Below are positions 2,109-64,000 of a DNA stretch of 64,000 bases, in pieces (the first letter of the stretch is position 1; every line of letters starts with the position of its first letter). This DNA is from Sinonovacula constricta (lineage: Eukaryota > Mollusca > Bivalvia > Cardiida > Solecurtidae). The stretch covers positions 29,701,994-29,765,993 of the forward strand of contig CM017561.1 of NCBI GenBank assembly GCA_007844125.1. The letters are read 5' to 3'. The translations under genes were made by a program, and so were the position numbers. The notes beneath the pieces were generated by a model. The model made no database searches, was not told where the DNA came from, and saw nothing but the letters and a program-made list of their open reading frames with translations.

Positions 2109-2444
2109 TGTGCCTTTCGAGGATGTGCTTGGAGAGACCGATGGGGTTACACGCCATTGACTGCGTTTGGTCGAACTACTTACAAATGCTTCGAGTGCTG
2201 GAAGAGCTTACTGTACAAGATTGCCACACTTTTCTGTGGCATCTGCGTCGGCAGCTACTGGGGCTGCGTGTTCTCCTGCATCGCCTGTGAACACGTCTGG
2301 TGCATCACACCAATGATGAAGGTGGTCGAGTTGAACTGCGCCATCTTCAGAAGAATCTACCATCTCTGCGTTGATTGCATCGTAGGTCCCTGCTGCGAAA
2401 CATGCGCTCTCTGCTTCAGCCAAATCAAGATACAGAAAGGATAG
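2109..2444 (+). CDS. CAV-like: Divergent cysteine-rich caveolin-like protein, last exon (5' part outside window)
   Basis: This is the second exon of a caveolin-family gene. Acceptor CAG ends at 2108 and the TAG stop is at 2442-2444. In the acceptor phase used by the sister genes the exon is open for 111 codons. From about codon 23 it reads as a caveolin: TYKCFECW, LFCGICVGSYWGC, EHVWCITPMMK and a SQIKIQKG tail. The exon is 336 nt against 333 in the intact copies. The extra 3 nt come from three separate 1-nt insertions, near 2118, near the GAGACCGATGGG stretch, and near 2181. The first ~20 codons are therefore out of the ancestral frame and the FEDV..EP signature is scrambled, but the downstream frame is restored. 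The cysteine matching CAV1 C133 is methionine here (TPMM). With 13651-16707 it forms a separate sub-branch. It may be a fast-evolving gene, a young pseudogene, or carry assembly errors. Confidence 0.6.
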   Translation, partial: CAFRGCAWRDRWGYTPLTAFGRTTYKCFECWKSLLYKIATLFCGICVGSYWGCVFSCIACEHVWCITPMMKVVELNCAIFRRIYHLCVDCIVGPCCETCALCFSQIKIQKG

Positions 2445-3126
2445 GAAATGCAATTATTTCATCAAAGCCGTTTTAAAAAGAAACAACTTAAAATTGGTCT
2501 TTAAAACTTAATGACGATATTGGGAAACGGCTGACAGTTTCAGCAATCCAACATCTGAGTTTTCATTTTTTTAAATGATATATGCTACTAATCTACATCC
2601 AAAACATGCAATGATATCGCGTTTAATGTGATAAAATGCAATTTCAACCGATATTAAAAGTGAAAAACTATATAGGATGCCCCTTTACGTGAAAAATTGA
2701 CCACACAACAAATATATCGCAAGTGCTTTTAAATTATTATTTTTTATTTTTTTTTATACCAAATTGATGTCTTTTTTTAGTGTATCTATATTCAGCTTTA
2801 TTTATAGTATTGTTTTGTAACCATTTGAATAAACTATATTTCCTCTATAAGATTATGTTGGTACATTATCCCAAACATTTATTATATCAGTTTCTCCATA
2901 TGCTATTCATTCAATCCGTTATTTTTTTCCCAAAATGTTCATTTTTCAATTTTATTTTGTACTCACATAACACTTTAATTGCCACATAATAAATTAATTG
3001 ATGTTCATGTAACCTAGAATGCTTTTTTCCCCTAATTATCATTTAAAGGTGGTACTACAGAGTTTGGGTCCCATTGTAAATCTCTCAAATATCCCAAATA
3101 AATTATCATTACATGAAAAGATCCAC
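2445..3126. other. Intergenic AT-rich DNA with an inverted-repeat element end
   Basis: No gene is seen. At about 3040-3056 the motif TTTAAAGGTGGTACTACAGA resembles the left end of the TTAA/AGGTGG inverted-repeat family (see 17592-18426). No partner end is obvious nearby. Confidence 0.4.
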
Positions 3127-3352
3127 CGGCCGCAATAGCTCAGGTGGTAGAGCGTCGGCTTGCGGATCGGGAGGTCGTGGGTTCGGACCATGGCCGGGTC
3201 TTACCAAAGACTTTAAAGTTGGTAGTAGTGGCTTCCCTCCTAACGCTCGTGTCTAAGGGGACAGCATTACGCCTGACTCGTCGGTGTCAGTATAATGGAC
3301 CGGCCGGGTTCAGTACCTGGGCACCTTATAAGTGCCCCTGCAGTAAAAGTTT
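3127..3352 (+). mobile_element. tRNA-derived SINE, family 1
   Basis: The head is tRNA-like, with an A box (AGCTCAGGTGGTAGAG) and a slightly altered B box (GGTTCGGACC). A unique body follows, ending near GGGCACCTTATAAGTGCCCC. A second copy on the opposite strand lies at 24642-24884. A tRNA gene is excluded because the anticodon arm and 3' half do not fold as a tRNA and the body is shared with the other copy. Confidence 0.75.
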
Positions 3353-3494
3353 GTGTATAAATTTTGGTCAGATTCCCCAACACAGGCATAGTATATTTTT
3401 ACATGTATTTGATAACGGCAAACTGATGCCACCTTTAACAATAATTATCGCCTTTGATATCATGATCAACCATACGCTGTCAATCTCTACTTCA

Positions 3495-3557
3495 ATGAAA
3501 ACCACAACAACAACAACAAATTTAAAAACAACAACAACAAAAACAAAACAACACACA
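3495..3557. repeat. CAA/ACA-rich simple repeat
   Basis: Short run of ACAACAACA and AAACAACAAC units following the SINE. It accounts for the Thr-rich open frame in this place. Confidence 0.7.
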
Positions 3558-3665
3558 AATTAGTCAAGAACACATATTTTACTACATTTGGAAAGAAAAA
3601 CAAATTTACTGTTCTCAAAATATTTGTTTGCGCATGGAATCACCAACAGTAACCATCGATAGGCG

Positions 3666-3755
3666 CAATCGGAACTCCTCGGGTAATTCCGTCCACGGGA
3701 CAATCATCATTCGTGAATTATCCGAGGTGTTCCGATTGCGATAGGCGGAATTAGC
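3666..3755. repeat. Palindromic foldback element (short copy)
   Basis: Arms of about 26 bp, CGCAATCGGAACTCCTCGGG and its near-perfect reverse complement ending TCCGATTGCG, flank a ~30 bp loop. The same palindrome recurs at 60704-60782, and a half copy lies at about 46714-46744. It therefore looks like a dispersed foldback MITE. Confidence 0.65.
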
Positions 3756-3759
3756 GTTG

Positions 3760-4408: not shown

Positions 4409-7400
4409 AACTACCACTTTCAATCACTATCACTACCACTACTACTACCACGTCCGCTACCACTTTCACTACCCTCGTCTCAACCATTTCTGCTACCACT
4501 TTCATTACTCCCGTCTCAACTACTTCCGCTACCATTTTCACTACCCCCGTCTCAACCACTTCTGCTACCACTTTCACTACCCTCGTCTCAACCACTTCCG
4601 CTACCACTTTCACTACCCCCTTCTCAACCACTTGTACTACCACTTTCACTACCCCGGTCTCAGCCACTTGTACTACCACTTTCACTTCCCGCGTCTCAAC
4701 CACTTGTACTACCACTTTCACTTCCCCCGTCACAACCACTTGTACTAACACTTTCACTACCCCCGTCTCTACCACTTGTACTACCACTTTCACTACCCCC
4801 GTCTCTACCACTTGTACTACCACTTTCACTACCCCCGTCTCTACCACTTGTACTACCACTTTCACTACCCCCGTCTCAACCACTTCCGCTACCACTTTCA
4901 CTACCCCCGTCTCAACCACTTCCGCTACCACTTTTACTACCCCCGTCTCAACCACTTCCGCTACCACTTTCATTACCCCCGTCTCAACCACTTCCGCTAC
5001 CACTTTCACTACCCCCGTCTCAACCACTTCCGCTACCACTTTCACTACCCCCGTCTCTACCACTTGTACTACCACTTTCACTACCCTCGTCTCAACCACT
5101 TCCGCTACCACTTTCACTACCCCCTTCTCAACCACTTGTACTACCACTTTCACTACCCCCGTCTCTACCACTTGTACTACACTTTCACTACCCCCGTCTC
5201 AACCACTTGTACTACCACTTTCACTACCCCGGTCTCAGGCACTTGTACTACCACTTTCACTTCCCGCGTCTCAACCACTTGTACTACCACTTTCACTTCC
5301 CCCGTCACAACCACTTGTACTACCACTTTCACTAACCCCGTCTCTAACACTTGTACTACCACTTTCACTACCCCCGTCTCTACCACTTGTACTACCACTT
5401 TCACTACCCTCGTCTCTACCACTTGTACTACCACTTTCACTACCCCCGTCTCTACCACTTGTACTACCACTTTCACTACCCCCGTCTCTACCACTTGTAC
5501 TACCACTTTCACTACCCCCGTCTCAACCACTTCCGATATCACTTTCATTACCCCCGTCTCAACCACTTCCGCTACCACTTTCACTACCCCCGTCTCAACC
5601 ACTTCCGCTACCACTTTCACTACCCCCGTCTCAACCACTTCCGCTACCACTTTTACTACCCCCGTCTCAACCACTTCCGCTACCACTTTCACTACCCCCG
5701 TCTCAACCACTTCCGCTACCACTTTCAATACCCCCGTCTCAGCCACTTCCGCTACCACTTTCACTACCCCGTCTCAACCACTTCCGCTACCACTTTCACT
5801 ACCCCCGTCTCTACCACTTGTACTACCACTTTCACTACCCCCGTCTCTACCACTTGTACTACACTTTCACTACCCCCGTCTCAACCACTTGTACTACCAC
5901 TTTCACTACCCGGGTCTCAGCCACATGTACTTCCACTTTCACTTTCAGCGTCTCAACCACTTGTACTACCACTTTCACTTCCCCCGTCACAACCACTTGT
6001 ACTACCACTTTCACTACCCCCGTCTCTACCACTTGTACTACCACTTTCACTACCCCCGTCTCTACCACTTGTACTACCACTTTCACTACCCCCGTCTCAA
6101 CCACTTCCGCTACCACTTTCACTACCCCCATCTCAACCACTTCCGCTACCACTTTCACTACCCCCGTCTCAACCACTTCCGCTACCACTTTCACTACCCC
6201 CGTCTCAACCACTTCCGCTACCACTTTCACTACCCCCGTCTCAACCACTTCCGCTACCACTTTCACTACCCCCGTCTCAACCACTTCCGCTACCACTTTC
6301 ACTACCCTCGTCTCAACCACTTCCGCTACCACTTTCACTACCCCCTTCTCAACCACTTGTACTACCACTTTCACATCCCCCGTCTCAACCACTTGTACTA
6401 CCACTTTCACTTCCCCCGTCTCAACCACTTGTTCTACCACTTTCACTTCCCCCGTCTCAACCACTTCCGCTACCACTTTCACTACCCCTTCTCAACCACT
6501 TGTACTACCACTTTCACTTCCCCCGTGTCAACCACTTGTACTACCACGTTCACTTCCCCGTCTCAACCACTTGTACTAACACTATCGCTTCCCCCGTCTC
6601 AACCACTTCCGCTACCACTTTCACTACACCCTTCTCAACCGCTTGTACTACCACTTTCACTTCCCCCGTCTCAACCACTTGTACTACCACTTTCACTTCC
6701 CCGTCTCAACCACTTGTACTACCACTTTCACTAAACCCTTCTCAACCACTTGTACTACCACTTTCACTTCCCCCGTCTCAACCACTTCCGCTACCACTTT
6801 CACTACCCCCTTCTCAACCACTTGTACTACCACTTTCACTTCCCAATTCTCAACCGCTTGTACTACCACTTTCACTTCCCCCGTCTCAACCACTTGTTCT
6901 ACCACTTTCACTTCCCCCGTCTCAACCACTTGTACTACCACTTTCACTTCCCCCGTCTCAACCACTTCCGCTACCACTTTCACTATCCTCTATTTAACCA
7001 CTTTCGCTACCACTTTCACTACCCCCGTCTCAACCACTTCCGCTACCACTTTCACTATCCCCGTCTCAACCACTTCCGCTACCACTTTCACTACCCCCGT
7101 CTCTACCACTTGTACTACCACTTTCACTACCCCCGTCTCAACCACTTCCGCTACCACTTTCACTTCCCCCGTCTCTACCACTTGTACTACCACTTTCACT
7201 TCCCACGTCTCTACCACTTGTACTACCACTTTCACTACACCCTTCTCAACCACTTCCGCTACCACTTTCATTACCCCCGTCACAACCACTTCCGCAACCC
7301 CTTTCACTTCCCCCGTCTCTACCACTTGTACTACCATTTTCACTTCCCCCGTCTCTACCACTTGTACTGCCACTTTCACTATACCCTTCTCAACCACTTC

Positions 7401-10400
7401 CGCTACCCCTTTCATTACCCCCGTCACAACAATTTCCGCTACCACTTTCATTACCCCCGTCAAAACCACTTTCGCTACCACTTTCATTACCCCCGTCACA
7501 ACCACTTCCGCTACCACTTTCATTACCCCCGTCTCAATCACTTCCGCTACCACTTTCACTACCCCCGTCTCAACCACTTGTACTACCACTTTCACTACCC
7601 CCGTCTCTACCACTGTACTACCACTTTCACTACCCCTGTCTCCACCACTTCCGCTACCACTTTCACTACTCCCCGTCTCAACCACTTCCGCTACCACTTT
7701 CACTACCCACGTCACAACCACTTCCGCTATCACTTTCATTACTCCCGTCTCAACCACTTCCGCTACCACTTTCACTATCCCCCGTCTCAACCACTTGTAC
7801 TACCACTTTTACTTCCCCGTCTCAACCACTTGTACTACCACTTTCACTTCCCCCGTCTCTACCACTTGTACTACCACTTTCACTACACCCTTCTCAACCA
7901 CTTCCGCTACCACTTTCATTACCCCCGTCACAACCACTTCCGCTACCACTTTCATTACCCCCGTCACAACCACTTTCGCTACCACTTTCATTACCCCCGT
8001 CACAACCACTTCCGCTACCACTTTCATTACCCCCGTCTCAACCACTTCCGCTACCACTTTCACTACCCCCGTCTCAACCACTTGTACTACCACTTTCACT
8101 TCCCCGTCTCAACCACTTGTACTACCACTTTCACTACCCCCGTCTCTACCACTTGTACTACCACTTTCACTACCCCCGTCTCTACCACTTTCACTACCCC
8201 CGTCTCAACCACTTGTACTACCACTTTCACTACCCCCGTCTCTACCACTTGTACTACCACTTTCACTACCCCCGTCTCTACCACTTGTACTACCACTTTC
8301 ACTACCCCCGTCTCTACCACTTGTACTACCACTTTCACTACCCCCGTCTCAACCACTTGTACTACCACTTTCACTACCCCCGTCTCAACCACTTGTACTA
8401 CCACTTTCACTACCCCCGTCTCTTTCACTTGTACTACCACTTTCACTACCCCCGTCTCTTTCACTTGTGCTACCACTTTCACTACCCCCTTCTCAACTGC
8501 TTCCGCTACCACTTTTACTACCCCCTTCTCAACTGCTTCCGCTACCACTTTCACTACCCCCCTCTCAACTGCTTCCGCTACCACTTTCACTACCCCCTTC
8601 TCAACTGCTTCCGCTACCACTTTCACTTCCCCCTCTCAACTGCTTCCGCTACCACTTTCACTACCCCCGTCACAACCAATTCCGCTACCACATTCACTTC
8701 CCCCTCTCAACCGTTTCCGCTACTACTTTCACTACCTTCTATTTAACTGCTTCCGCTACCACTTTCACTACCCCCTTCTCAACTGCTTCCGCTACCACTT
8801 TCACTACCTTCTATTTAACTGCTTTCGCTACCACTTTTACTACCCCCGTCTCAACTGCTTCCGCTACCACTTTTACTTCCCCCTCTCAACCACTTCCGCT
8901 ACTACTTTCACTACCTTCTATTTAACTGCTTTCGCTACCACTTTTACTACCCCCTTCTCAACTGCTTCCGCTACCAGTTTCACTACCCCCCTCTCAACCA
9001 ATTCCGCTACCACATTCACTACCTCCTTTCAACCACTTTCGCTACCACATTTACTACCCCCGTCTCAGCCAATTCCGCTACAACTTTCACTACCTTCTAT
9101 TTAACCACTTCCGCTACCACTTTCACTACCCCCTATCTACCACTTCTGCTACCACTTTCACTACCCCCATCTCAACCTCGTGTACTACCACTTTCACTAC
9201 CTCCGTCTTAACCACTTCCGCTACCATTTTCACTATCCCCCCCCCCCTCAACCACTTTCGCTACCACATTTACTACCCCCGCCTCAACCATTTCCGCTAC
9301 CACTTTCACTACCCCCTTCTCAACTGCTTCCGCTACTGATTTCACTACCCCCTTCTCAACTGCTTCCGCTACCACTTTCACTTCCCCCTCTCAACTGCTT
9401 CCGCTACCACTTTCACTTCCCCCTCTCAACCCTTTCCGCTACCACTTTCACTACCTTCTATTTAACTGCTTCCGCTACCACTTTCACTACCCCCTTCTCA
9501 ACTGCTTCCGCTACGACTTTCACTACCCCCTTCTCAACTGCTTCCGCTACCACTCTCACTTCCCCCTCTCAACCCCTTCCGCTACTACTTTCCCTACCTT
9601 CTATTTAACTGCTTTCGCTACCACTTTCGCTACCCCCTTCTCAACTGCTTCCGCTACCAGTTTCACTACCCCCCTCTCAACCAATTCCGCTACCACATTC
9701 ACTACCTCTTTTTAACCACTTTCGCTACCACATTTACTACCCCCGTCTCAGCCAATTCCGCTACAACTTTCACTACCTTCTATTTAACCACTTCCGCTAC
9801 CACTTTCACTACCCCCTATCTACCACTTCCGCTACCTCTTTCACTACCCCCATCTCAACCTCTTGTACTACCACTTTCACTACCTCCGTCTTAACCACTT
9901 CCGCTACCACTTTCACTACCCCCGTCTCTACCACTTCTGCTACCACTTTCACTACCCCCATCTCAACCTCTTGTACTACCACTTTCACTACCTCCGTCTT
10001 AACCACTTCCGCTACCATTTTCACTATCCCCCCCCCTCAACCACTTTCGCTACCACATTTACTAACCCCGCCTCAACCATTTCCGCTACCACTTTTACTA
10101 CCCCCTTCTCAGCCACTTGCACTACCACTTTCACTACCTCTCTCTCAACAACTTTCACTACCTCTTTCACTACCCCTCTCTCAACAACTTTCACTGCCTC
10201 TTTCACAACCCCTCTCTCAACAACTTTCACTACCTCTTTCACTACCCCTCTCTCAACAACTTTCACTACCTCTTTCACTTCCCCTCTCTCAACAACTTTC
10301 ACTACCTCTTTCACTACCCCTCTCTCAACAACTTTCACTGCCTCTTTCACAACCCCTCTCTCAACAACTTTCACTACCTCTTTCACTACCCCTCTCACAA

Positions 10401-13286: not shown

Positions 13287-13779
13287 TCTACTGAATATGT
13301 GGCAACAATATTATTGTTAATTAAATGACTTTTAAGCGTTAATCAGACGCACATTTTAAGTGGTGAAGTTTTAACAACAGACGACAGTGTCTTGCAACTT
13401 TGTTATAAGTGCATTTCACTTTTCTTTTGTTTCTATTTCTATTTCTATACTACTAATTACTCTCGTTGAAAATCTTTTGTTTCCGCCCGTTCCAGGCGGT
13501 TAACTTGTCCGTCTGATATCTTAACCTGGGATATGTGTTTACAAATTGAGCCCGGCATGTTCGGTGTGACAGAACCTTTTTCAGGTGGTCAGGAGTAGCA
13601 AGAACGTTTCAGCGGACATATTGTTCTGACAGAGACTCAAACCTACAACCATGGGCGAACTCAACCTTGTGAACAGAGCCCCAACAACCTTAATGCGCAC
13701 GTGAAGGTAAGACAAAAGCACCGTGTGACCGCTTATTAAAAGTAAACGTTAATAATGTGTGTAATCTTCAGATCACTGT

Positions 13780-15931: not shown

Positions 15932-16902
15932 AAAACAAAACAATTAATTATCGGTTTGTATACGAATTGTGTATTACAGTTACTTTGAAGTCACGCTAAA
16001 CTTGCATTTAAATTGAAGCCGATACATTATTCATGTTTGATTGACCTATTAATGGAAAATCCATATTAGTTTCGAATTATTTAAACAGCTATGTGGTTAA
16101 AACATGTACATTTGCATTGTAAGCATACTGTTCCAACGACAAGATAGGCAGTGGGTGCGGATTTATGATCGATATATTCACTGTGATTGCCTATTCAGTT
16201 TAAAGTGGTGTCCGGCAGTTTAAACCAAACATTTTTCCTCAGATAAACAAATTAAGTCATTGTTTCTTGAAAAATTCTTGCGAAATTGTGTTCATTGATG
16301 CCTTATATCTACGTGAACAGTAAAGCATAAATCCCCACTTGGTATTGTTTGTCATTTTTTTTAACTTTCAGTGCGCCTTTGAGGATGTGCTTGGAGAGAC
16401 CTGATGGTGTACACGCCATTGACTGCGTTTGGTCGAACTACTTACAAATGCTTCGAGTGCTGGAAGAGCTTACTGTACAAGATTGCCACACTTCTCTGTG
16501 GCATCTGCATCGGGAGCTACTGGGGCTGCGTGTTCTCCTGCATCGCCTGTGAACACGTCTGGTGCATCACACCATTCATGAAGGTCGTCGAGATGAAGTG
16601 CAGCATCTTCAGAAATCTCTGCCATCTTTGTGTCGGCTGCCTGCTCGGCCCTTGCTGCGAAACATGCTGCCATCTTCTTTAGTAAAATCAAGATACAGAA
16701 AGGCTAGGAAAATGTCATTATTTCTTAACTGTTATTATGGCGATATATATCGAACTTTTGCGACTTTTGCAGCAATGTTCGAAACAAATAACTTTAAATC
16801 GACTAATCAACCAAGATGGGATTTTTTTTCATTCGTTAACAAGCTGACATAATCCCCAGAAACGACTTAAGGTATCGCTAACGGCTGAATATGCCACTTA
16901 TT

Positions 16903-17591: not shown

Positions 17592-18426
17592 TTAAAGGTT
17601 ATATCCGACAGTTCCGGGGAGATATGATATCATTTATGCATAACCTCATACTTCAGTTAAACTAAAGGTTGTTTATTGCACTGTCTATATCATTAGACAG
17701 CAGATAAGGTGAAATAAATAGAGGGTCTGAGATGTGTGTTCATTAGTTACTGAAAATATTAACCGAGTTGGATACAATGATACGAAACGAGTTTGTATTT
17801 CCAGTATCTAATGAACACGAATATTAAATTCTATTTATCATATAACCAAACCATCAGCTGTTTTTTGTTTTGTTTACAATGCATCATCTTTTTTATTGTA
17901 TGAACAGTTGGCCTTTACATGTGTAATTCGGTTTGGGAGAATCCGCACAAAAATAGTTCCACTCTTTACTCGACCATTCTCGATAAAAAGGGAGCAGATT
18001 CGTTTATAACATGACTATAATGTTATTTTTTATTAATTAAAACAAGATTGTCACACGTCACACAACGATAAATAACTAGTGTGTTACCAAAAATAGCGAA
18101 TGAGTGTTACCTCGCGCTCGCGCGGTAGGTTATGTGATAATTCACTTTATATGTTTATTCTTTCCGAAACTATAAATAAGCCCAATGGGATTTCAGCTAA
18201 AAATAGATATCGACGTCCATAGCTGATTACTCGCAAAGGTCACGTGGTTTTCTCAGTTAAAAATAGCTAACTATGCATCGTGGCTAGGATAGGAAACACA
18301 ATTATTTGTAATGACAAAATGGGTTTTATGCTTAACTTTTCGCATTGGCGATTTTCAGGTAACTATAAATAAATTAGCTGCATGAGAGAAAACAAAGTGA
18401 ACCAAACTGTCGTATACCACCTTTAA
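17592..18426. mobile_element. TTAA-type inverted-repeat element carrying an inner foldback unit
   Basis: The ends are TTAAAGGTTATATCCGACAG at the left and CTGTCGTATACCACCTTTAA at the right. They are inverted copies bounded by TTAA, the target duplication typical of piggyBac- and Kolobok-like elements. Inside are a palindromic B unit (about 17718-17835) and an A unit (about 17837-18147), the same modules that form the array at 41933-47186. No transposase is visible, so it is non-autonomous. Related ends occur at 20184, 24957-25755 and 27658-28127. Confidence 0.6.
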
Positions 18427-21775: not shown

Positions 21776-22863
21776 TTACCCTTTGGTAATCTTGATTCGG
21801 CTGAAGATCATACCACAAGCCTCACATACTGGACCACAACAACACATGATCATGGTTCCCCATATCTTCTGGATACAGCCTGAGCAGATGGCGAAGTCCC
21901 TCATGCATGGAGTGTAGATCCAGACATGGTTGAATGCTGTCGCGGCGAAGTTGCAGCCCCAGGCGAGAGCAATGCAGATACCACAGAGTACGGTGAGCAC
22001 TTTGTAGCAGAGGGACTTGCCGCATTCGAAGCAGTTGTAGCTGCACTTCCATATGCAGTCAATGGACCGAACACCTTCTGGCTCTCCCAGGACATCCTCG
22101 AAGCAAACCTGCAAACACATTTAAGTTCTGTTTAATTTCTGTTTGGAAATAGGTACATGCCTAATTTTAATGATATTAACATTATGCATGCTTAAACAAC
22201 AACGCCTTAAAGCGTTTCAGGACGAAAGTCGTACAACGTTACATTGTGGTCCACGTTTAAAGTTTTCCTAAAATATATTTCTCAGAATTAAGTATGAAAT
22301 CACAGCACCTCTCACCACAACTATATGTAAATCATTTTACTGTACGGTTTCAAGTTGTAGCTATCAAATAATAACATCGAATATAAAAATGAATATACCT
22401 TTTGATATATGATATCGTTAGAAAAGGTTCTAATTCTTATTCATAATCTGATATTTTTTATTATACAAAGACATTTTTAGTATGTATATTACTATTCTGG
22501 TTCATTTACTTGGTCTATGACGTACTTTATCTTGAAAAGAAACAACGCATCAAGTATATTTAGTTTAAACATAATCAGTGGCAATTTTAAGTATTAAACT
22601 CGAAATATTAAAATCAGAATAATTGACACAAATAGCAGCCATACATTTTTATATACATAGAAAACACTTGTACAATACTTGGACTGAGTCGAATAGCTTA
22701 TGTGACAACAATATGTTTTGAAGAAAAATCATCAACATTTAACTTTTATTCTAGTTTAAAATGACTAGCAATATTTAGTAATACTGCTAAAAGTTAGACC
22801 TACCTTAATGTGATTGTTTAGATCGTTGGGATCTCTGTTGTTCATATCAAGCTCGCCACCCAT
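21776..22863 (-). CDS. CAV-like: Cysteine-rich caveolin-like protein (130 aa, two exons)
   Basis: Exon 1 is complement(22804..22863), 20 codons, MGGELDMNNRDPNDLNNHIK, donor AAG|gtaggt. Exon 2 is complement(21776..22108), 110 codons plus TAA, acceptor ttgcag. The ATG follows CAAA, a good context. The protein has the caveolin signature FEDVLGEPEG (about residues 23-32), a scaffolding-domain equivalent DCIWKCSYNCFECGKSLCYK, an intramembrane hairpin with VLCGICIALAWGC, then FNHVWIYTPC and the C-terminal SRIKITKG. By family knowledge it would sit as a hairpin in the cytoplasmic leaflet and oligomerise. Exon 2 encodes 17 cysteines. All three palmitoylated CAV1 cysteines (C133, C143, C156) have counterparts, and CAV1 P110 is cysteine. 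The N-terminal ~50 residues of CAV1 are absent. Its tail (K-I-T-K-G) groups it with 55429-57749. A TATA box lies 88 nt upstream. Confidence 0.9.
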
Positions 22864-29905: not shown

Positions 29906-30859
29906 ATGGGTGGAAACGATTTGGATTTGGAGAACCGCGATCCAAATAACCTCAATGCGCATGTTGCTGTACGTAGAACAATTTTTAAAAATATTTTAAA
30001 TTAGTTTTGTTGCTTTTATTTTATTCATTTATTTAATTTTATGTTATTTTATTATTTACGTTTTATTGCTCTTTAAGATGTTTTTTTTTTCTCTTACGAA
30101 TCTCAGGGTCAACGCAAATACTTTGTTAAACATTTAGACATTATTCATTTGAACGATCTGCTGTCGCTGAAATGTTCATGCACATCATGTTAACTTCATG
30201 AATACTAAACACTTGAATTAACGCTTTAAAAATAAATAAATAAAGGTTACGTCAGAAAGAATGATTCGAAAAGGTAAATTTCTCTTCACTGAAAATGTTC
30301 AAACACATATTTCTGCAGTTTTAGTAAAATGCCGATTTAAATGCAATGTACAATTTCAAAAATAAGAAGCATAATATTATTGTATAGGACAGAAAATGTT
30401 TTGTTGATTTCTTAAAATACAACATAAGATCTTTGTCTGGTGTTCTTAATTCCTTTTCCTCTTGCCGTCTAATTAAAACAGCATCTGAAATTGTATCTAC
30501 TTTATATATTTTCATTTGTCTTTTAGTGTATGTTCGAGGATGTCCTCGGCGAGCCAGAGGGTGTCCGATCCATCGACTGTATCTGGCGCTGCACCTACAA
30601 GTGTTTCGAGTGCTGCAAGGGATGCTGCTACAAGTTAATGACCCTCTTTTGTGGCATCTGTATCGCCATCTTCTGGGGCTGCGACTTCGCTGTCACCGCC
30701 TTCAACCACGTATGGATCTTCACCCCCTGCCTCCGAGATTTTGCCATCGCCATGGGCTGCCTTGGAAAGGTGTCGAGGATTTTCCTGGATTGTTGCTGCT
30801 CGCCCGTGTGTGAAGCCTGTGGCATGTGTCTGAGTAACATTCGTGTTAAAAAGGTATAA
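29906..30859 (+). CDS. CAV-like: Cysteine-rich caveolin-like protein (131 aa, two exons)
   Basis: Exon 1 is 29906-29968 (21 codons, MGGNDLDLENRDPNNLNAHV plus Ala, donor GCT|gtacgt). Exon 2 is 30527-30859 (110 codons plus TAA, acceptor ttttag). The exon starts C-M-F-E-D-V-L-G-E-P-E-G, the caveolin signature. The scaffolding region is DCIWRCTYKCFECCKGCCYK: CAV1 W85, F92 and Y100 are kept, while G83, A87, T91, V94, T95, W98 and F99 are Cys. The hairpin segment is LFCGICIAIFWGCDF, with Cys at CAV1 P110 and an Asp within the membrane stretch. The C-terminal part has FTPC, MGCLGK and DCCCSPVCEACGMC, containing the equivalents of the three CAV1 palmitoylation cysteines. There are nineteen cysteines in all. 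AATAAA at 31134-31139 is a likely poly(A) signal. It is closest to the locus at 34119-35210, with which it is convergent. Confidence 0.92.
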
Positions 30860-34118: not shown

Positions 34119-35210
34119 TTACATTTTCTTAATACGAATGTTACTGAGGCATGTACCCCAGGCTTCACACACAGGCGAGCAGCAACAATCCAGGAAAATC
34201 CTGGCAATTTTCCCAAGGCAGCCCATGGAAATGGCGAAATCTCGGAGGCAGGGAGTAAAGATCCATACGTGGTTGAAGGCGGTGACAGCGAAGTCGCAGC
34301 CCCAGAAGATGGCGACACAGATGCCACAAAAGAGGGTCATTAACTTGTAGCAACATCCCTTGCAGCACTCGAAACACTTGTAAGGTGCAGCGCCAAACGC
34401 AGTCGATGGATCGGACACCTTCTGGCTCGCCAAAAACATCCTCAAAGCACACCTGTGAGACCAAAATGTTCAAAACTGTTGTTAGATATGATGCAAAAAT
34501 AGTTAAAATATCAATAAATCACGCAATGGTTATTTTTACTATACTCAAAAATATGAAATAGAGCAAAACAGATATTATGCCTTTTGCGAGTGTTTGAAAC
34601 TATATATGGTTATAACTATGATTTTTTATATCGCTAAATGCTAAACTAACATTTGCGATGTCTTTACTACCTTAAATGCTATTTTAAATGCTGCCACCAA
34701 AATAAATTTTCATTATTTGCTATATATATTGTTAACTGTCGAATTGTCAAACTCTTGCAAATTGATAACCTTTTATGTTTTTGTTTTTTTTTATATATAT
34801 TTTTGTTGTTGTCATGAGAAGTTCAGCTAAAACACTTTCTTGTTGTTGAAAATACTGATAAACACAACACTTTGGTGTCATTTTGTGAGCAATTAAACGT
34901 TTCTGCAAATAATGTGCATAAACTGAATGCATGTTAATTGTAAGATAATACTAGTAGTAAATAGTATCATAATGTGATATGATATGATAATATGATTCGT
35001 ATTATATATAAGTAGTCTATTGTGTATATTGAATAATCACTGACATCACGTATCAACATAATTGTACTTATTTCAATTAACGAATATATAATAAAACGTA
35101 TAATTATATGATATAATCAGCGTACCAATTATACAATTATAAGTACGTACCCGAATGTGATCATTAAGATTGTTTGGATCCCTATTCACCAAGTCCAAGT
35201 CACCAGCCAT
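34119..35210 (-). pseudogene. CAV-like: Cysteine-rich caveolin-like locus with a single +1 frameshift
   Basis: Exon 1 is complement(35151..35210), 20 codons, MAGDLDLVNRDPNNLNDHIR, donor CGG|gtacgt. Exon 2 is complement(34119..34452), acceptor cacag. Exon 2 begins V-C-F-E-D-V-F-G-E-P-E-G-V-R-S-I-D-C-V-W and is intact to Thr-Cys-Trp-equivalent codons. There the sequence reads ACCTTACAAG where the sister at 29906 has ACCTACAAG. The extra T makes the exon 334 nt instead of 333 and shifts the frame. Downstream the ancestral frame is fully open and highly conserved (KCFECCKGCCYK, FWGCDFAVTAFNHVWIF, SNIRIKKM). No good TATA box is visible, only a weak TTTATT about 65 nt upstream. The high conservation means either a very recent pseudogene, a sequencing or assembly error, or recoding. 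Confidence 0.8.
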
Positions 35211-37560: not shown

Positions 37561-37562
37561 TA

Positions 37563-39065: not shown

Positions 39066-40458
39066 TTATGATTTTTTAATACGGATGTTACTCAGACACA
39101 TGCCACAGGCTTCACAGACAGGCGAGCAGCAACAATCCAGGAACACTCGCGAAATCTTTCCAAGACATCCCATGGCGATTGCGAAATCTCGGAGGCAAGG
39201 AGTGAAGATCCATACGTGGTTGAAGGCGGTGAGAGCGAAGTCGCAGCCCCATGCCATGGCGATACAAATGCCACAAAAAAGGGTCAAGATTTTGTAGCAT
39301 AGTCCCTTGCAACACTCGAAGCATTTGTAGCTGCAACGCCAGACGCAGTCGATGGAGCGGACGCCCTCTGGCTCACCAAGAATATCTTCGAATAAGCACT
39401 GAAACAATAAGCAAAACATCCTTTTATTATTTACTTATTTATTTTATTATTTATTGTTAGTAATAACTTCACTTTATCACAAGTAGTTAAATCAAGGTTT
39501 AAATTGGATTGGAGACGTTGCCCTTCTATGGCAGTTTAAAGTGCTCCGAAAGCCGCAACATCTAGTCAAGAACTGTTTTGTTTAACTATTACACGTTTAA
39601 CGATGGGTATGAAAACTTGATGTGCTGTAAAATACGATGTGCTCATGCTGATTAATGTCAAAGATACTTACATATTAAAGTTAACGGATTAATAAAGTGC
39701 CTCATTAATAAAAATTAACATAAATGATACGATATCTACATCACATTCAATCATTTGGAAATGTTTTAAGTAATTCTTAAACTGATTGCAATGCCTACAG
39801 TGTAACACGTATCCAGTTTGATATTTACAGTGTTAAAAAATGTAAGACAAATACATTCCATCATGTATTTTATGTATATACATTTGGATGACATTTCTAT
39901 ATATGTCGACGATTTTTATCTCGGATGCCTTTTGAGATTTTTTTTCTCTGTTTTTACATTTTATTAAGTTTCAGAAGTCACCAGCAAAATCCTTTACCAG
40001 AGACTATCATTACTGATGTTTCCTTTCATCTGCTGTTATTATAACTTATATAATGTTATGTTACTTCCTCAGAGCCTTGCTCGTCGAATGAGTTGACATA
40101 AACTTACAAAAACCGCTTTTTAATAAAAAAAAAATTGGTTTTTCTTTCTCAATCGACTAGTTTATGACAAGCCGTTTTGTTTTGTGCATACACAGCCTAT
40201 GTGCGCTATATTCCAATGTACATAGAAGAGTTAAACATAATATATAAATGTTTGTTAAATCCTATTTATTTAACTGAAGTTTAAATATATACGAAGTAAA
40301 TATATAATTAAACAAATTCTAACATATTCACTGAATGGCGTTTGTAAATTTTAAATGTTTTCTGCTTTATTTTAAGACCCAGTCATCATCCTCACCTGAA
40401 CGTGGTTATTCAATCCATTCGGATCCCTATTCTCCATATCTAAATCAGCGCCACCCAT
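39066..40458 (-). CDS. CAV-like: Cysteine-rich caveolin-like protein (131 aa, two exons)
   Basis: Exon 1 is complement(40396..40458), 21 codons beginning MGGADLDMENRDPNGLNNHV, donor CAG|gtgagg. Exon 2 is complement(39066..39398), 110 codons plus TAA, acceptor tttcag. The signature reads FEDILGEPEG. The scaffolding-equivalent is DCVWRCSYKCFECCKGLCYK. The hairpin has LFCGICIAMAWGC with Cys at the CAV1 P110 position. FTPC, AMGCLGK and DCCCSPVCEACGMC hold the equivalents of CAV1 C133, C143 and C156. It has eighteen cysteines, all in exon 2, and ends NIRIKKS. The frame is unbroken and the splice sites are canonical. A TATA box lies 83 nt upstream of the ATG. It belongs to the sub-branch with 29906, 34119 and 49519 (tail SNIRxKK). 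Confidence 0.92.
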
Positions 40459-41900: not shown

Positions 41901-42202
41901 TACGTTATACCCAGAGATTTGTCCGATATTCCATTTTATCACATAACCTACCGCGCGAGCGTGAGGTAACACTCATGCGTTATTTCTGGTAACCCACTAG
42001 TTAGTTATCGTAGTGTGACGTCATTATCGTAGTGTGACGTCATTAAATATGTGCGGTGTATGTGCCATTTCCCGATCACTTTGTTGTCACCGTTTCATGC
42101 ATTTTGTTGGACAATTTCATGTTAATTAATAAATAGATAACATTTTAGTCGTGTTATAAACGAATATGTTCCCTTTGTGTGGAAAATGGTCGAGTAAAGA
42201 CT

Positions 42203-49518: not shown

Positions 49519-50564
49519 TTATGCTTTCTTTATACGAATGTTACTGAGGCACATGCCACAAGCTTCACACACAGGCGAGCAGCAACAATCCAGGACCACT
49601 CGAAAAATCTTTCCAAGACATCCCATGCAGATGGAGAAATCTCGGAGGCAGGGAGTGAAGATCCAGACGTGGTTGAAGGCGGTGATAGCGAAGTCCCAGC
49701 CCCAGAAGATGGCGATACAGATGCCACAGAACAGGGTCAAGAGCTTGTAGCACAATCCCTTGCAACATTCAAAGCATTTGAAGCTTGAACGCCAGATGCA
49801 ATCGAACGAGCGGACACCTTCCGGTTCCCCAATCACGTCTTCAAATTGGACCTGTGTAAAAAAAAATTAAGCCACGTATTAGGAATTTGTTACAGGAACT
49901 CTGTTGTTAAAGATTTCGAAAAAGGTATAAGAAATATGTTTATTCTGAGTATATGTTTTGAAAGACGTGTGAAAATAAACTTGTCACGAAACAATGAACA
50001 TGTCTTCGTTGTATTATATATTTTAAATCATTGAGAAAGTTGCTCACTTTTATTTATTTGTGTTAATTTGTTATTTATACGCATTAAAATACGTAAACCA
50101 TTGTAGAAATGTTGCATTTTATTATCTTTTAAACAATACACATTTTCCGCGGCACTTTTCAATAACAGTTATAACAAATACACAGTTTTGTCTCAATACT
50201 GCATTCGGATTAATTCGGCCTTTTTTTACTTTCACGTTCTTCGCCGAACGTGTACGGAAAGGACTGAAGATGATGCGAAGTTCAACATTTATTATGAAAT
50301 ACTTCCCGTCTAATTATATATATATTTTTTAAATTATTTAATCCCGTTTAGTTACATTCCCTACTGCTGTATTCAAACTTTAAACGTAGTTTAACTATAA
50401 ATAACGTTATGTTTGCGGTTTTTTTTAAATAATATATTATTACACTTCTACTGTTTAAATTCAACTAAAAACGTTATTAAACATCTAAAATGCAAAACAT
50501 TACATACCAGAATATGACCGTTAATCTCGTTCGGATCACGATTTTCCATATCTGGTTCACCCAT
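49519..50564 (-). CDS. CAV-like: Cysteine-rich caveolin-like protein (129 aa, two exons)
   Basis: Exon 1 is complement(50508..50564), 19 codons, MGEPDMENRDPNEINGHIL, donor CTG|gtatgt. Exon 2 is complement(49519..49851), 110 codons plus stop, acceptor cacag. The signature is FEDVIGEPEG, the closest in this cluster to the vertebrate FEDVIAEPEG. The scaffolding-equivalent is DCIWRSSFKCFECCKGLCYK, with fewer cysteines and Phe at CAV1 F89. The hairpin is LFCGICIAIFWGWDF, Cys at the P110 position but Trp where sisters have Cys. FTPC, CMGCLGK and DCCCSPVCEACGMC follow, and the tail is NIRIKKA. Sixteen cysteines. It may be the least derived of the cysteine-rich set. A TATA box lies 108 nt upstream. 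It is divergent from the gene at 55429. Confidence 0.92.
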
Positions 50565-55428: not shown

Positions 55429-57749
55429 ATGGAGCTTGATATGGAAAACCGAGATCCAAATGATCTCAATAACCATCTGAAGGTAAATTGGATCTTTGAT
55501 ATAGTTTACAATATTGTAAATTGTTACACTATTTTTTTTCCTCTTAAAACGCTCACAGTCAAAATTTCGGCAACTTGAGTAATAATATACAATTAAATGA
55601 CGTTCAGTAAATGGCGGGAAAAACGACGTTGTCCTTATAGGACGTTGACGTCGTTTCCGTGCTTGTATAATAAGACAGCGCCTATTATCGTTGGTAATGG
55701 TGTAAAGAGAGCAATTGTTTGTGTTTATCTCTTGAAAAAGGCAATTTGCCGACAATTTGAGGGGACACTTGCACTTTACCTGGTACGTAAAAATGCTCTG
55801 TTGGTAATGTTGAGTTTCATTTGCCATAGTTCAGTTTTCTATATTGTTTCACGTTTGATGTTATGGTGTATCGGAGCTACCGCCCCCGAACACCCGTTTT
55901 AAAAAGCGACAGAAACATGAGCTTTAATCGTTATTTCACAGGGCTGGAAAAATATGGTAGTCCGACGTCCCGGACAAGTAAAAATGCAGTTTCGGGCTAC
56001 TGGTCATTGATCATTAAATTAGTCCCGGACAATTCATAAATCGGCAGTCGGACATGTGACCATATAAACAACGTTTTCTAATTAGCGACGAAGGCAGTCC
56101 ATTACACGACAGGAGCATTTATCAGCAACACGTATAGGCGGTACATGTACAATGCATGTACACGTTTAAAACAGCAAATCGCGATTGCGCGATATATAAA
56201 CGCTTCTAGACAAAATAAATAAATAAAAGGAACAACTTGATTTATACCTTGTTTGTTAGTTGTAGATATGATAAATATGTTGTTTTGTTCGTTAATTGAC
56301 AACGACGCATATTTTCGGACAAGTCATTTTTGTCCAGGTAATGAGTCCGGGACTAGTCGTTGAAAAGGATTTTTTTCCAGGCCTGATTTCTTGTTGAGAA
56401 ATGTTCCAGTCGTTGTTTAATTGCCATTTACTCATTTATACGTTAGTAAAAAGGGTTTTGTAATATTTAAATATATGCATATATATGTTTATGCGTACAT
56501 GGTTTATCCATATGTGTATATCTCTATATACTTTTTATAATACAATCAGGGTTAACACTATCCTTATGTTAATAAAATAAAAGGCATTATTAAGCATCCC
56601 AGTCTTTTAAGGCTGAATTCTTTCCAATGTATGATGTTTCATTCTGTAAATTACTCATGTTTGAATAATCATTGTCGCACACGTCTTTGGCATATATCTA
56701 ACTGGACACTCCAATGTTATATACATGTTCGTACGTGTCTTTATCAAATACCTAATTGGACACTCCAATGTTATATACATGTTCGCACATGCCTTTATCA
56801 AATACATAATTGGACACTCTAATGTTATATACACGTTCGCACATGTCTTTATCAAATACATAATTGGACACACCAATGTTATATACACGTTCGCACATGC
56901 CTTTATCAAATACATAATTGGACACACCAATGTTATATACACGTTCGCACGTGCCTTTATCAAATACCTAATTGGACACTCCAATGTTATATACACGTTC
57001 GCACGTGCCTTTATCAAATACCTAATTGGACACTCCAACGTTATATACATGGACGCACGCGCCTTTATCGTATACATAGTTGTACATGCCATTATTATTT
57101 ACATGGTCGCACATGTCTTTATTATTTACATGGTCGGACATGTCTTAATTTTTTATATGGTCGCACGTTTCAATTAATTACATGGTCGCACATTACTTTA
57201 TTATTTACATGATCGCACATGCCTTTATTATATACATGGCCGCACATTTGTACTAAAGTCCCTATATCGCGTTTATAATTTAACAAATACCCGTTGTTAA
57301 AGAGATGTTAGCTCTGATATATAAAAGCCTCATATTTTAATTACTTCAATAAAGCGAGTTTAATTGCATGTATTGTATGCGTAAATCTAAAACGTTATGT
57401 CGTGTTATAACTTCAGGTGTGTTTCGACGACGTATTAGGCGAGCCTGAAGGAGCGCGGTCAATCGATTTCATTTGGAAATGTAGCCACACATGTTTCGAA
57501 TGTGGCAAAAACTTCTGCTACAAGTTGCTCACCACCCTGTGTGGAATCTGCATAGCCTTCCTGTGGGGCTGTGATTTCTCGCTGACCGCCTTCAATCACA
57601 TCTGGATACTCACTCCCTGCATGCGAGACTTCAGCATCTGCATCGGCTGTGTCAGGAAGGTTGTCAACATATTCATTGATTGTACATGTGGACCGATCTG
57701 CGAAGCTTGCGGTCTATGTTTCAGTAGAATAAGAATAACGAAGGGCTAA
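55429..57749 (+). CDS. CAV-like: Cysteine-rich caveolin-like protein (128 aa, two exons)
   Basis: Exon 1 is 55429-55482, 18 codons, MELDMENRDPNDLNNHLK, donor AAG|gtaaat. Exon 2 is 57417-57749, 110 codons plus TAA, acceptor cttcag. The signature is FDDVLGEPEG, with Asp for the usual Glu. The scaffolding-equivalent is DFIWKCSHTCFECGKNFCYK, the hairpin TLCGICIAFLWGC with Cys at the P110 position. FNHIWILTPC, ICIGC and DCTCGPICEACGLC follow, and the tail is SRIRITKG. Sixteen cysteines. The equivalents of CAV1 C133, C143 and C156 are kept. Its best relative in the window is 21776-22863. The 1934-nt intron is the longest among intact copies because it contains a hAT-like MITE and a 54-bp tandem repeat. 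AATAAA at 57931-57936 is a likely poly(A) signal. Confidence 0.92.
55939..56385. mobile_element. hAT-like MITE in a caveolin intron
   Basis: Inverted ends CAGGGCTGGAAAAA and CAGGCCTGGAAAAA, then GTCCCGGACAAG-type blocks inverted between both halves (GACGTCCCGGACAAGT; GAGTCCGGGACTAGTC). CAGG-type ends are usual for hAT elements. Only ATTTC is shared by the flanks, so the 8-bp duplication is not confirmed. Confidence 0.55.
56690..57245 (+). repeat. 54-bp tandem repeat (27-bp dimer) in a caveolin intron
   Basis: GGACAC occurs at 56704, 56758, 56812, 56866, 56920, 56974 and 57028, an exact 54-bp period. Each unit is a dimer of two diverged 27-bp halves (TTATATACATGTTCGCACAT; TCAAATACCTAATTGGACAC). 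After about 57060 only the 27-bp half continues (TTATTTACATGGTCGCACAT). As 54 is divisible by 3, 145-150 codon frames are open on both strands. Confidence 0.9.
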
Positions 57750-61510: not shown

Positions 61511-61511
61511 A

Positions 61512-61692: not shown

Positions 61693-61699
61693 CTTTTCT

Positions 61700-62325
61700 T
61701 ATTTAAGGACCGTACGCGATGTATAGAAATATCGACACAACTTTCAACAGTAAAACCACAAATATTTTTTAAAACACATGTGAATTTATATTAGTATAAT
61801 GTAAAATTACTTCACATGTATGCGTATGAAAAACAAACAATTATCTTAACATTCTATCGTGTGATACAAACCACATTCCTTTAATAATTCTGAATTATGA
61901 GTGATTTAATTTCTGACCATTATTTATTTTTTGTAAGAATGCTCTAGATTATTAAATTATAACAAACTATATTTCAGCTAACTATTTATTGACTTAAAAT
62001 GAGAAAGACTGCAGTTATCAATGTTTTGAACAAATGCCACTGATAAAGTGAAAAAGGTGTAATTAAGGCACTTTTGAACATGTGTGCAGCTTTGGGGTTA
62101 TTCCAAAAACAGTGAAATAATAGACCTTTATAATAAGTCTATTTTAACGAACTGAATACATATAATATGACTGATAATTTAAGCTTACAGTATAATGTTT
62201 TGTATGGTCATAATCTAATACATGCAGAAATTAAGCAACTACATGTACATAAAAAACATTAATGGCAATATACGTTCAGGACATGCAATAGGCATTTAGT
62301 TCGGTCAACATTTAGTTCAAAGTTC
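61700..62325. other. Intergenic DNA
   Basis: AT-rich. No gene seen. Confidence 0.4.
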
Positions 62326-62329
62326 CTCT

Positions 62330-62790
62330 CAAATTTAGGCAAAGAACAAGTGAATCGCGTCATTTGCTGTTGGAATGCATTATTTGGAGACAGTACATTC
62401 AACAAGATACCTACTGACGTGAGATTCACAAAAAGTAAATCGCGTCATTTGCTGTTGGAATGCATTATTTGGAGACAGTACATTCAACAAGATACCTACT
62501 GACGTGAGATTCACAGAACAGGTAAATCGCGCCATCTGCTGTTCGTAAGTTTTACTTGAAGACGGTATATACAACAAGATACCTACTGACGCGAGATTCA
62601 CAGAAAAAGTAAATCGCGTAATTTGCTGTTGAAATGTTTGATTTGGAGACAGTACATTCAACAAGATACCTGACGTTAGGTTCACAGAACAGGTAAATCG
62701 CGCTATCTGCTGTTAGTTTGTTTTACTTAAATACATAATATTCAACAATATACCTTATGACGTGAGATTCAAACACCATTTAAGGTAGCT
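62330..62790. repeat. 86-bp tandem repeat, about five copies
   Basis: CGCGTCATTTGCTGTTGGAA-type starts at 62356, 62441, 62528, 62615 and 62699 (period 84-87 bp). The unit includes TTGGAGACAGTACATTCAAC and AAGATACCTACTGACGTGAG. The first two copies are almost identical. The repeat keeps a 101-codon minus-strand frame open. I do not call it a gene, because period lengths that are not multiples of 3 occur. Confidence 0.9.
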
Positions 62791-62799
62791 ATTCCCTAA

Positions 62800-63715
62800 A
62801 AAAAAGGGAAGATATTTATGTTTGTCTTCCAATTATGTCATTGTCTATCCGCTGTTGAAACGCTTTGGTTTGAGACTTTTTAATAAGTGCGTTATGCATA
62901 AACATCCCCTTCCAATTGCTCAGACATAGAATCTCGTTCAGGTAAATAAGAACTTTCGATTTTTATGAGTTTTGAGACATTGTTCGCATTTTCTATTATT
63001 AAAAAAAATCGGTTATTTATTAAACTCTGCAGTTACATTAATTTCAATAGATAATTGTTTTTAACACGTATTATCATTACCGAATTATGAATGCATATAA
63101 ATCACATTTAACCGTGTATCATGTTTCCTTATAAGATGGTAAACAATTGTAGTTCTTTGCAAAACAATGACAATGGTCAAATCAGAATCATTTGAATGCA
63201 CATTGAAGCTATATATATATAGTTATATGCTTTTTAGAATTGACAATAATTTAAGACAAACGGATCTCTTGCAGTTTCACATACTGTAACTTACGCAAAC
63301 CCATACTCTTAACGTCATTACTATATTTGTAAAAATGATGCGTTCTATACAGCGGACACACATATCAGCCTTTCTTTCGCTCAGAATTCTCCCGATATTT
63401 AAACAACGCATGCCTTGATCAACATAGATTACGCTTGTTACTCGTTCATATACCATCCTTTGCATTTAAACCGTTCTAACGTATCGATATATTTCGTGCA
63501 TCTGTTTAAACAGCTGCAATTCACACTGCTACAGTCACCACCGAAAGTAGATACACACTGTATTCCATCCTAAATAATGATACTTTCTTCTCTTTTCTTC
63601 GCTAGATGTATAAGATTAGCGAATTTTCCCTTGTCTCTGACAATATTGGAATAGACTTTCCAGTTTGGCTTTTTCTTTCCATGAGCAGTCGACGTTCCTG
63701 CCGGAGCGCCGTTCT
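62800..63715. other. Intergenic DNA and probable 3' UTR
   Basis: No gene. It lies downstream of the caveolin stop codon at 63723. Confidence 0.4.
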
Positions 63716-63722
63716 CGTACCG

Positions 63723-64000
63723 TCAGTCCTTAGTCGAGTGTATCCGAATGTTGCTGAAAATGTGACTTACAGCCTCAAAACAGGGCTGCACGAAGGATCG
63801 AACTAGCAGCGTGAAGACCCGAGACAGAGGCCGTACCTGTATGTTTAAGCTTCTCATTCCTGGTTGTAAGGTCCATATTTGAAGGAAAGAAAGGCATGCG
63901 AAATGGATACCCCAACAGAGCGCACAAGGAACCCCGCACAAGGCCGACATGAACTTATAACACCAAATCTTGGAGTCCGTAAAAATTCGGAAACTGGCGC
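63723..64000 (-). CDS. CAV: Caveolin, conventional type (C-terminal exon; continues past the window edge)
   Basis: Minus-strand open frame running from the window end to a TGA stop at 63723, at least 91 codons. It aligns without gaps to the vertebrate caveolin core: ASFRIFTDSKIWCYKFMSAL corresponds to the scaffolding domain and its exit. CGVPCALCWGIHFACLSF is the intramembrane hairpin with the turn proline (CAV1 P110) conserved. LQIWTLQPGMRS follows, then LSRVFTLLVRSF and the caveolin-typical FEAVSHIFSNIRI near the C-terminus. It is far closer to CAV1/CAV3 than the eight cysteine-rich copies. The positions of the CAV1 palmitoylated cysteines C133 and C143 are Gly and Arg, and C156 aligns with Val, with a Cys three residues later. 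The N-terminal half and signature lie outside the window. By family role it would oligomerise and build caveolae. Confidence 0.92.
   Translation of the reverse strand, partial: ASFRIFTDSKIWCYKFMSALCGVPCALCWGIHFACLSFLQIWTLQPGMRSLNIQVRPLSRVFTLLVRSFVQPCFEAVSHIFSNIRIHSTKD

What the first reader, a model, noticed from the sequence alone, without database searches (positions are those of the whole stretch)
2109..64000. Local expansion of cysteine-rich mini-caveolins, nine caveolin-family loci in 64 kb
Seen: eight loci share a two-exon plan and encode about 130-residue proteins with FEDVxGEPEG, a scaffolding-like stretch and FxxVWxxTPC, and carry 16-19 cysteines (CFECCKGCCYK, DCCCSPVCEACGMC). Known: vertebrate CAV1 has three cysteines, all palmitoylated. 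Inference: this is a lineage-specific caveolin subfamily, perhaps very heavily acylated, disulfide-linked or metal-binding, and not described in the vertebrate-based caveolin literature. Orientation is mixed (+,+,-,+,-,-,-,+,-), so simple unequal crossing-over does not explain the cluster.
Basis: partly seen in the sequence, partly recalled or inferred. Interest (0 to 1): 0.88.

Follow-up and report, generated by a model that had tools for sequence, protein, structure and literature searches.

The report
Cysteine-packed caveolin gene cluster
A stretch of what is likely a clam-type genome holds nine caveolin genes or gene remnants, and the five intact ones encode short caveolins with 16 to 19 cysteines where human caveolin-1 has three; the same cysteine-rich type turns up in many molluscs, and its cysteines are likely lipid-anchoring sites on what is predicted to be a disk that shapes the cell membrane.

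Summary
Nine loci match Pfam Caveolin, in the orientations given. Five are intact two-exon genes (128-131 aa, 16-19 Cys); the four pairs with a computable dS have omega 0.07-0.12. Three of the eight "mini-caveolins" are broken (c34 by one inserted base, c2 and c16 by several). The ninth, at the window edge, is an ordinary caveolin with 6 Cys in 91 residues. The cysteine-rich form is not private to this lineage: all 123 homologues listed have 11-23 Cys (median 15); of 84 with a name, 82 are molluscs (bivalves, gastropods, a chiton), one a nemertean, one a flatworm. The tree gives two groups, each with bivalves, gastropods and a chiton (the second weakly supported), plus a four-copy burst seen only in this genome. 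All five intact proteins have Cys at the three caveolin-1 acylation sites; the ordinary neighbour has none. In the spoke helices, though not in the scaffolding helix, the Cys lean to the hydrophobic face. That favours heavy S-acylation over metal binding, as an inference. Mollusc caveolins are in print; my searches listed no paper on this cysteine richness. A new variant of a known kind.

The parts
2109..2444 (+). c2: exon 2 of a diverged cysteine-rich caveolin, probably a pseudogene; three 1-nt insertions shift a stretch that includes the signature motif, and the frame is then restored
   Evidence: Pfam 2.2e-19; alignment; frame; exon 1 not in window
13651..13706 (+). c16 exon 1, decayed (56 nt, net loss of one base in the NRDP codons)
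   Evidence: nhmmer E 8.2e-5; sequence
16372..16707 (+). c16 exon 2, pseudogene: stop after CAFEDVLGET and further shifts
   Evidence: Pfam 6.2e-14 on the later part
22804..22863 (-). c21 exon 1 (intact gene, 17 Cys)
21776..22108 (-). c21 exon 2 with stop
   Evidence: Pfam 2e-35
29906..29968 (+). c30 exon 1 (intact gene, 19 Cys); TATA-like box at 29791
30527..30859 (+). c30 exon 2 with stop
   Evidence: Pfam 2.2e-32; CAV1 1.8e-26
35151..35210 (-). c34 exon 1 (frame open)
34119..34452 (-). c34 exon 2, broken by a single inserted base; downstream part still caveolin-like
   Evidence: Pfam 2.5e-20 on the downstream part
40396..40458 (-). c39 exon 1 (intact gene, 18 Cys)
39066..39398 (-). c39 exon 2 with stop
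   Evidence: Pfam 4e-33
50508..50564 (-). c49 exon 1 (intact gene, 16 Cys)
49519..49851 (-). c49 exon 2 with stop
   Evidence: Pfam 1.2e-35
55429..55482 (+). c57 exon 1 (intact gene, 16 Cys)
57417..57749 (+). c57 exon 2 with stop
   Evidence: Pfam 2.2e-35
63723..64000 (-). ninth locus: C-terminal part of an ordinary caveolin (6 Cys in 91 aa), cut by the window edge
   Evidence: Pfam 6.6e-26; CAV1 1.1e-24; stop codon

Best explanation
This is a cluster of caveolin genes, five of them intact and encoding short caveolins with 16-19 cysteines, in what is likely a heterodont bivalve; the proteins are predicted to form caveolin-type amphipathic disks whose many cysteines, likely membrane-facing, are likely S-acylated. 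Inferred working: exon 1 supplies the NRDPNxxN stretch and exon 2 the signature motif, scaffolding helix, spoke helices and C-terminal tail. Protomers would pack into a disk in the cytoplasmic leaflet. Fatty acids on the three caveolin-1 positions and on several of the added cysteines would anchor the disk harder, hold the oligomer together and gather ordered lipid. The gene cluster would give tissue- or condition-specific versions of such disks. Shown here: family, gene structure, selection, cysteine conservation, hydrophobic-face bias in the spoke. Inferred: disk, acylation, role. The duplications range from old to fresh.
For: Family: Pfam Caveolin in all nine loci; nearest solved sequence CAV1 at 1.8e-26. 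AlphaFold2 model mean pLDDT 87.1 (pTM 0.39), one helical run from residue 17 to 103 of exon 2; its only PDB match is the sea-urchin caveolin 9dn0, probability 1.00 but E 6e-3 and TM 0.45. Genes: splice sites and frames fit in five of the six loci with both exons recognisable in full. Of 25 homologues that sit on contigs of 708-1741 bases, 24 carry exon 1 joined to exon 2 (23 by pattern, P0096 by eye), as spliced transcripts would. Selection: of 10 pairs among the five intact copies, the four whose dS could be computed have omega 0.07-0.12 (one of them at dS 2.15); the other six are saturated. Cysteines: 123 of 123 listed homologues have 11 or more. Over 127 aligned proteins Cys stands at CAV1 positions 83 and 91 in 98%, 154 in 96%, 117 in 91%, 160 in 87%, 99 and 107 in 86%. 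All five intact proteins have Cys at CAV1 133, 143 and 156, the sites given as palmitoylated (PMC12337093, passage); the ordinary ninth copy has G, P and V there. In the spoke (108-169) Cys lie on the hydrophobic face of CAV1: mean cosine 0.37 against -0.04, p 0.002, and p 0.009 when shuffled only within hydrophobic and within other positions.
Against: No acylation, disk or expression data for this organism. In the scaffolding helix (81-107), where CFECCKGCC lies, the face bias is absent (p 0.28, strict 0.29; 0.22 and 0.47). Across the whole subfamily the three CAV1 acylation positions are Cys in only 53, 64 and 18%, less than several new positions. Conserved CxxC spacing (91/94 in 90 of 127, 160/163 in 83 of 127) would also fit metal or redox use. 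The PDB fold match is weak. The heterodont placing rests on tree position alone.
Confidence: 0.57

Rival explanations
1. The cysteines serve redox or metal chemistry: disks that hold many thiols would bind zinc, copper or cadmium, or sense oxidants, at the plasma membrane.
For: Conserved CxxC pairs (91/94 in 90 of 127, 107/110 in 82 of 127, 160/163 in 83 of 127). CAV3 is reported to be glutathiolated at one site (PMC10212548, passage). An 11-mer, if formed, would hold 176-209 thiols.
Against: Those pairs do not covary clearly (phi -0.09, -0.02 and 0.23), though positions that are nearly fixed, such as 91, give such a test little power. Conserved Cys lean to the hydrophobic face in the spoke, where cytosolic metal would have poor access.
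Confidence: 0.21
2. The cysteines are mostly unmodified packing residues: a moderately hydrophobic side chain that replaced larger ones in a short disk, without any special chemistry.
For: About 11.2 of 15.3 summed Cys frequency in region 81-169 sits at positions that are hydrophobic in CAV1.
Against: 56 of 89 positions there are hydrophobic anyway, so the enrichment is modest; Cys at 83 and 91 stands where CAV1 has Gly and Thr and is 98% conserved, which looks stricter than packing needs.
Confidence: 0.18
3. The cluster is mainly decaying duplicates with little function.
For: Three of eight cysteine-rich loci have broken frames; c2 against c16 has omega 0.35.
Against: Five intact genes, omega 0.07-0.12 in the four pairs where it could be computed, a TATA-like box 88-140 bases before the ATG in all five, and intact relatives in many molluscs.
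Confidence: 0.04

Closest known systems
Mollusc proteins deposited as caveolin-1-like or caveolin-3-like (Dreissena, Mactra, Mercenaria, Ruditapes, Mya, Aplysia and others)
   Same: Mostly about 125-135 aa, NRDPN exon-1 stretch, signature motif, 11-23 Cys.
   Different: This genome adds its own four-copy burst (c30, c34, c39, c49; support 100).
Vertebrate CAV1 and the 8S disk (PDB 7SC0)
   Same: Pfam family, signature motif, ungapped alignment over CAV1 residues 68-173 at E 1.8e-26; Cys at 133, 143 and 156 kept in the five intact copies.
   Different: About 44 residues shorter before the signature motif (it starts at residue 24 in c30, 68 in CAV1); 16-19 Cys instead of the 3 counted in CAV1 68-173.
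Vertebrate CAV3
   Same: More candidate acylation sites than CAV1 (six per protomer; PMC10212548, passage).
   Different: Still well below 16-19; CAV3 was not aligned here.
Type II caveolins and protostome groups of Han et al. 2025 / Kirkham et al. 2008
   Same: Likely where this subfamily belongs (not tested by tree); Mercenaria, Mya, Patella, Pecten and Pomacea genomes were in the Han analysis (PMC12330381).
   Different: Cysteine content is not discussed in the main text; supplements and the Kirkham paper were not read.

Membership tests
Caveolin (PF01146) | Match to the curated profile above its cut-off (25 bits) | tested here: met
   52.5-122.8 bits for eight loci, 91.3 bits for the ninth
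Caveolin (PF01146) | Signature motif (CAV1 68-75, FEDVIAEP) | tested here: met
   FEDVLGEP, FEDILGEP, FEDVIGEP or FDDVLGEP in the five intact copies and FEDVFGEP in c34; disrupted in c2 and c16; off the window in the ninth
Caveolin (PF01146) | Scaffolding and spoke helices | tested here: met
   Predicted helical run over residues 17-103 of c30 exon 2; ungapped alignment to CAV1
Type II caveolin | Pin motif (CAV1 49-60) | tested here: inconclusive
   Exon 1 encodes a stretch such as DLxNRDPxxLN, which resembles the CAV1 pin region as I recall it; exon 1 was not part of the structure job
Caveolin (PF01146) | Disk-shaped oligomer | not testable with these tools
   Single chains only; fold match to 9dn0 is weak
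Caveolin (PF01146) | Residence in caveolae or curved plasma membrane | not testable with these tools
   Needs cell work
S-acylated caveolin | Cysteines at CAV1 133, 143, 156 | tested here: met
   All three in the five intact copies; 53, 64 and 18% over 127 proteins; actual acylation untested
CxxC metal-binding protein | Covarying, cytosol-facing Cys pairs | tested here: inconclusive
   CxxC conserved, but phi -0.09, -0.02 and 0.23 for the three CxxC pairs, with little power at nearly fixed positions; hydrophobic-face bias in the spoke only

The most novel reading that the evidence does not exclude
Molluscs and kin keep a second kind of caveolin coat: a thiol-studded disk of some 180-210 cysteines per 11-mer, acylated across its membrane face into a lipid raft in miniature, with gene clusters supplying a palette of such disks alongside an ordinary caveolin that lacks the three caveolin-1 acylation cysteines.
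Probability: 0.26. Interest if true: 0.75.

Novelty: new variant of a known kind. Interest (0 to 1): 0.5.

Why it matters
Caveolin biology is built on CAV1, where acylation of three cysteines is reported to stabilise oligomers but not to be needed for localisation to caveolae (PMC12337093, passage). A natural subfamily with five to six times as many cysteines, many of them conserved, offers a direct test of what acylation does to disk assembly, curvature and lipid sorting. The ordinary ninth copy beside the cysteine-rich ones gives a natural control from one genome.

Tried and rejected
Rejected: 'lineage-specific subfamily' (relatives in 31 mollusc genera, a nemertean and a flatworm). Rejected: 'nine cysteine-rich genes' (three broken, one ordinary). 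Considered and dropped: a programmed frameshift shared by c2, c16 and c34. The extra base lies near the same codons, but c2 and c16 are each other's closest copies in the window (88.7% over exon 2) and carry other indels, and c34 looks like a separate event; an assembly error in c34 is also possible. Two printed values are not used: the omega for c34 against c21 (wrong anchor motif) and the c16 frame (started one base late; redone).

Led nowhere: the homologue search with the ninth copy found none (1 candidate), so its relatives and their cysteine counts are unknown here. Searching the window's own assembly did not complete, so copies outside the window are uncounted. Paper searches joining caveolin or caveolae with mollusc; evolution, invertebrate and cysteine; bivalve or gene family expansion; mussel; abalone; lophotrochozoa and cysteine-rich; oyster and tandem duplication listed 25 of 110, 20 of 145, 15 of 223, 15 of 144, 10 of 32, 2 of 3 and 2 of 2 papers; no listed title or opening abstract is about cysteine-rich mollusc caveolins. 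The CAV3 cysteine paper was not held. Fold search returned one chain only, so a family not listed there is not excluded.

Rows dropped: only the best 120 of 309 hits were listed. The tree used 82 of 123 homologues (the named ones without P0023 and P0024) plus 7 window sequences, two of them partial; it was rooted on one nemertean protein. The cysteine map used 122 of 123 (P0024, a tandem double, left out) plus 5 window proteins. The structure alignment used 87 of 123. The 25 short-contig homologues were picked by eye from the tables. Face bias was tested over several regions (81-107, 108-169, 81-169, 81-134, 135-169; the first three); p values are not corrected for that.
Full report
What was checked. 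Eight exon-2 reading frames in the window match Pfam Caveolin at 52.5-122.8 bits, cut-off 25, and a ninth at the right edge at 91.3 bits. The signature pattern, with up to 3 mismatches, occurs 7 times against 0.01 expected by chance. I name the loci by position in kb: c2, c16, c21, c30, c34, c39, c49, c57, and the ninth.

Gene anatomy. Exon 1 encodes 18-21 residues with the stretch NRDPNxxN and was found for c21, c30, c34, c39, c49 and c57. Joined to exon 2 at GT/AG sites (introns of 558-1934 bases), five give complete proteins of 128-131 residues: c21, c30, c39, c49, c57. A TATA-like box lies 88-140 bases before the ATG in those five and not in c34; such a hexamer occurs 3.9 times per kb and strand here, so this is suggestive only. 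c34 has one extra base in exon 2, which destroys the frame at the scaffolding helix. c16 has a decayed exon 1 at 13651-13706 (nhmmer E 8.2e-5; sequence), and its exon 2 stops after ten residues. c2 has three 1-nt insertions that restore the frame but scramble the signature motif; its exon 1 is not in the window. The ninth is an ordinary caveolin: 6 Cys in 91 residues against 16 in the matching 88 of c30, best solved match CAV1 at 1.1e-24.

Selection. Of the 10 pairs among intact copies, four have a computable dS: omega is 0.10 (c30-c39), 0.07 (c30-c49), 0.11 (c39-c49) and 0.12 (c49-c57, dS 2.15); the other six are saturated at synonymous sites. c34 downstream of its break against c30 has omega 0.11 and dS 0.37, so c34 was probably under constraint until recently. 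c2 against c16, over the part where both frames are open, has 0.35, synonymous and nonsynonymous rates still differing (Fisher p 0.014 on rounded counts), which fits decay after a constrained past.

Relatives. A search with the c30 protein gave 23 homologues and one with a 24-row alignment gave 309, of which 120 were listed. Together the listed ones are 123 distinct proteins; 84 carry a species name: 82 from molluscs of 31 genera, one from the nemertean Lineus longissimus and one from the flatworm Macrostomum lignano. All 123 have 11-23 Cys, median 15; Lineus has 16 and Macrostomum 14. So the cysteine-rich type is old and widespread, not local; whether it reaches beyond lophotrochozoans is open, since 189 weaker hits were not shown. 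Homologues on contigs of 708-1741 bases carry exon 1 and exon 2 joined in 24 of 25 cases (23 by pattern, P0096 by eye), as expected of spliced transcripts.

Tree. With 82 named homologues, rooted on Lineus, c30, c34, c39 and c49 form a private clade (support 100); c21 and c57 are older and group with these and with one Dreissena and one Ruditapes copy (92); all lie in a group with Mactra, Mercenaria and Mya copies (94) (ultrafast bootstrap). That is the basis for calling the source a likely heterodont bivalve. One large group (82) and a second (54) each hold bivalves, gastropods and the chiton Liolophura, which suggests a duplication before these classes parted; the second group's support is weak. 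The Macrostomum protein joins c2 and two heterodont copies (82-84), perhaps by long-branch attraction. Mixed orientation is then what an old, rearranged cluster would show.

Where the cysteines are. On CAV1 numbering over 127 aligned proteins, Cys stands at 83 and 91 (98%), 154 (96%), 117 (91%), 160 (87%), 99 and 107 (86%), 110 (76%), 94 (73%), 155 (72%), 163 (71%), 141 (68%), 143 (64%), 151 (56%), 133 (53%), 98 (43%), 156 (18%), with some lower ones. The five intact window proteins have Cys at all three CAV1 acylation sites 133, 143 and 156; the ordinary ninth copy has G, P and V there. CAV1 has 3 Cys in residues 68-173; that these are its only ones in the whole protein is recalled. With CAV1's own hydrophobic moment as an outside yardstick, the cysteines lean to the hydrophobic face in the spoke region (p 0.002; 0.009 under a stricter shuffle) but not in the scaffolding helix (p 0.28). 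CxxC spacings are common, and the three CxxC pairs do not clearly covary, a test of little power where positions are nearly fixed.

Mechanism. The best-supported reading is a caveolin-type amphipathic disk in the cytoplasmic leaflet, with heavy S-acylation on its membrane side. Family, gene structure, selection and cysteine conservation are shown; disk, acylation and role are inferred. If 11 protomers form a disk as in CAV1, it would hold 176-209 cysteines against 33. Palmitoylation of CAV1 is reported to stabilise oligomers without being needed for localisation (PMC12337093, passage), so more sites would plausibly mean a tougher, more raft-like disk. Redox or metal use is the main rival.

Known or new. 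Caveolins are known, mollusc caveolins are deposited, eight were counted in Aplysia (PMC9334734, passages) and mollusc genomes were part of the latest structural survey I found (PMC12330381; sections 7 and 8 and part 1 of 2 of section 10 read, and passages). That survey's main text does not use a word beginning with 'cystein' or 'palmitoyl'; its supplements were not read. Seven paper searches, whose lists were mostly capped, showed no title or opening abstract about the cysteine richness. I therefore file it as a new variant of a known kind.

Noticed in passing
window 4447-10392: A 36-base minisatellite of about 166 copies (87% matches) with strong strand skew, open in several frames on both strands.
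   Followed up: no
window 56699-57249: 54-base tandem repeats inside the intron of c57.
   Followed up: no
window 17710-18140, 37549-38077, 41935-42202, 45777-47179: Dispersed repeats shared between intergenic stretches of the cluster in both orientations, a possible aid to rearrangement of the copies.
   Followed up: no
window 34119-34452 against 30527-30859: c30 and c34 are 91% identical over exon 2, but the detected similarity stops near the exon ends; gene conversion or fast flank divergence could explain it.
   Followed up: partly
P0001 and P0025 (Dreissena polymorpha): Both are deposited as LOW QUALITY PROTEIN, a label that, as I recall, marks repaired frames, so broken copies may be common in such clusters.
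   Followed up: no
window 63723-64000: The ordinary ninth caveolin has no Cys at the three CAV1 acylation positions, yet has Cys at 99 and 107, two positions typical of the cysteine-rich type.
   Followed up: partly
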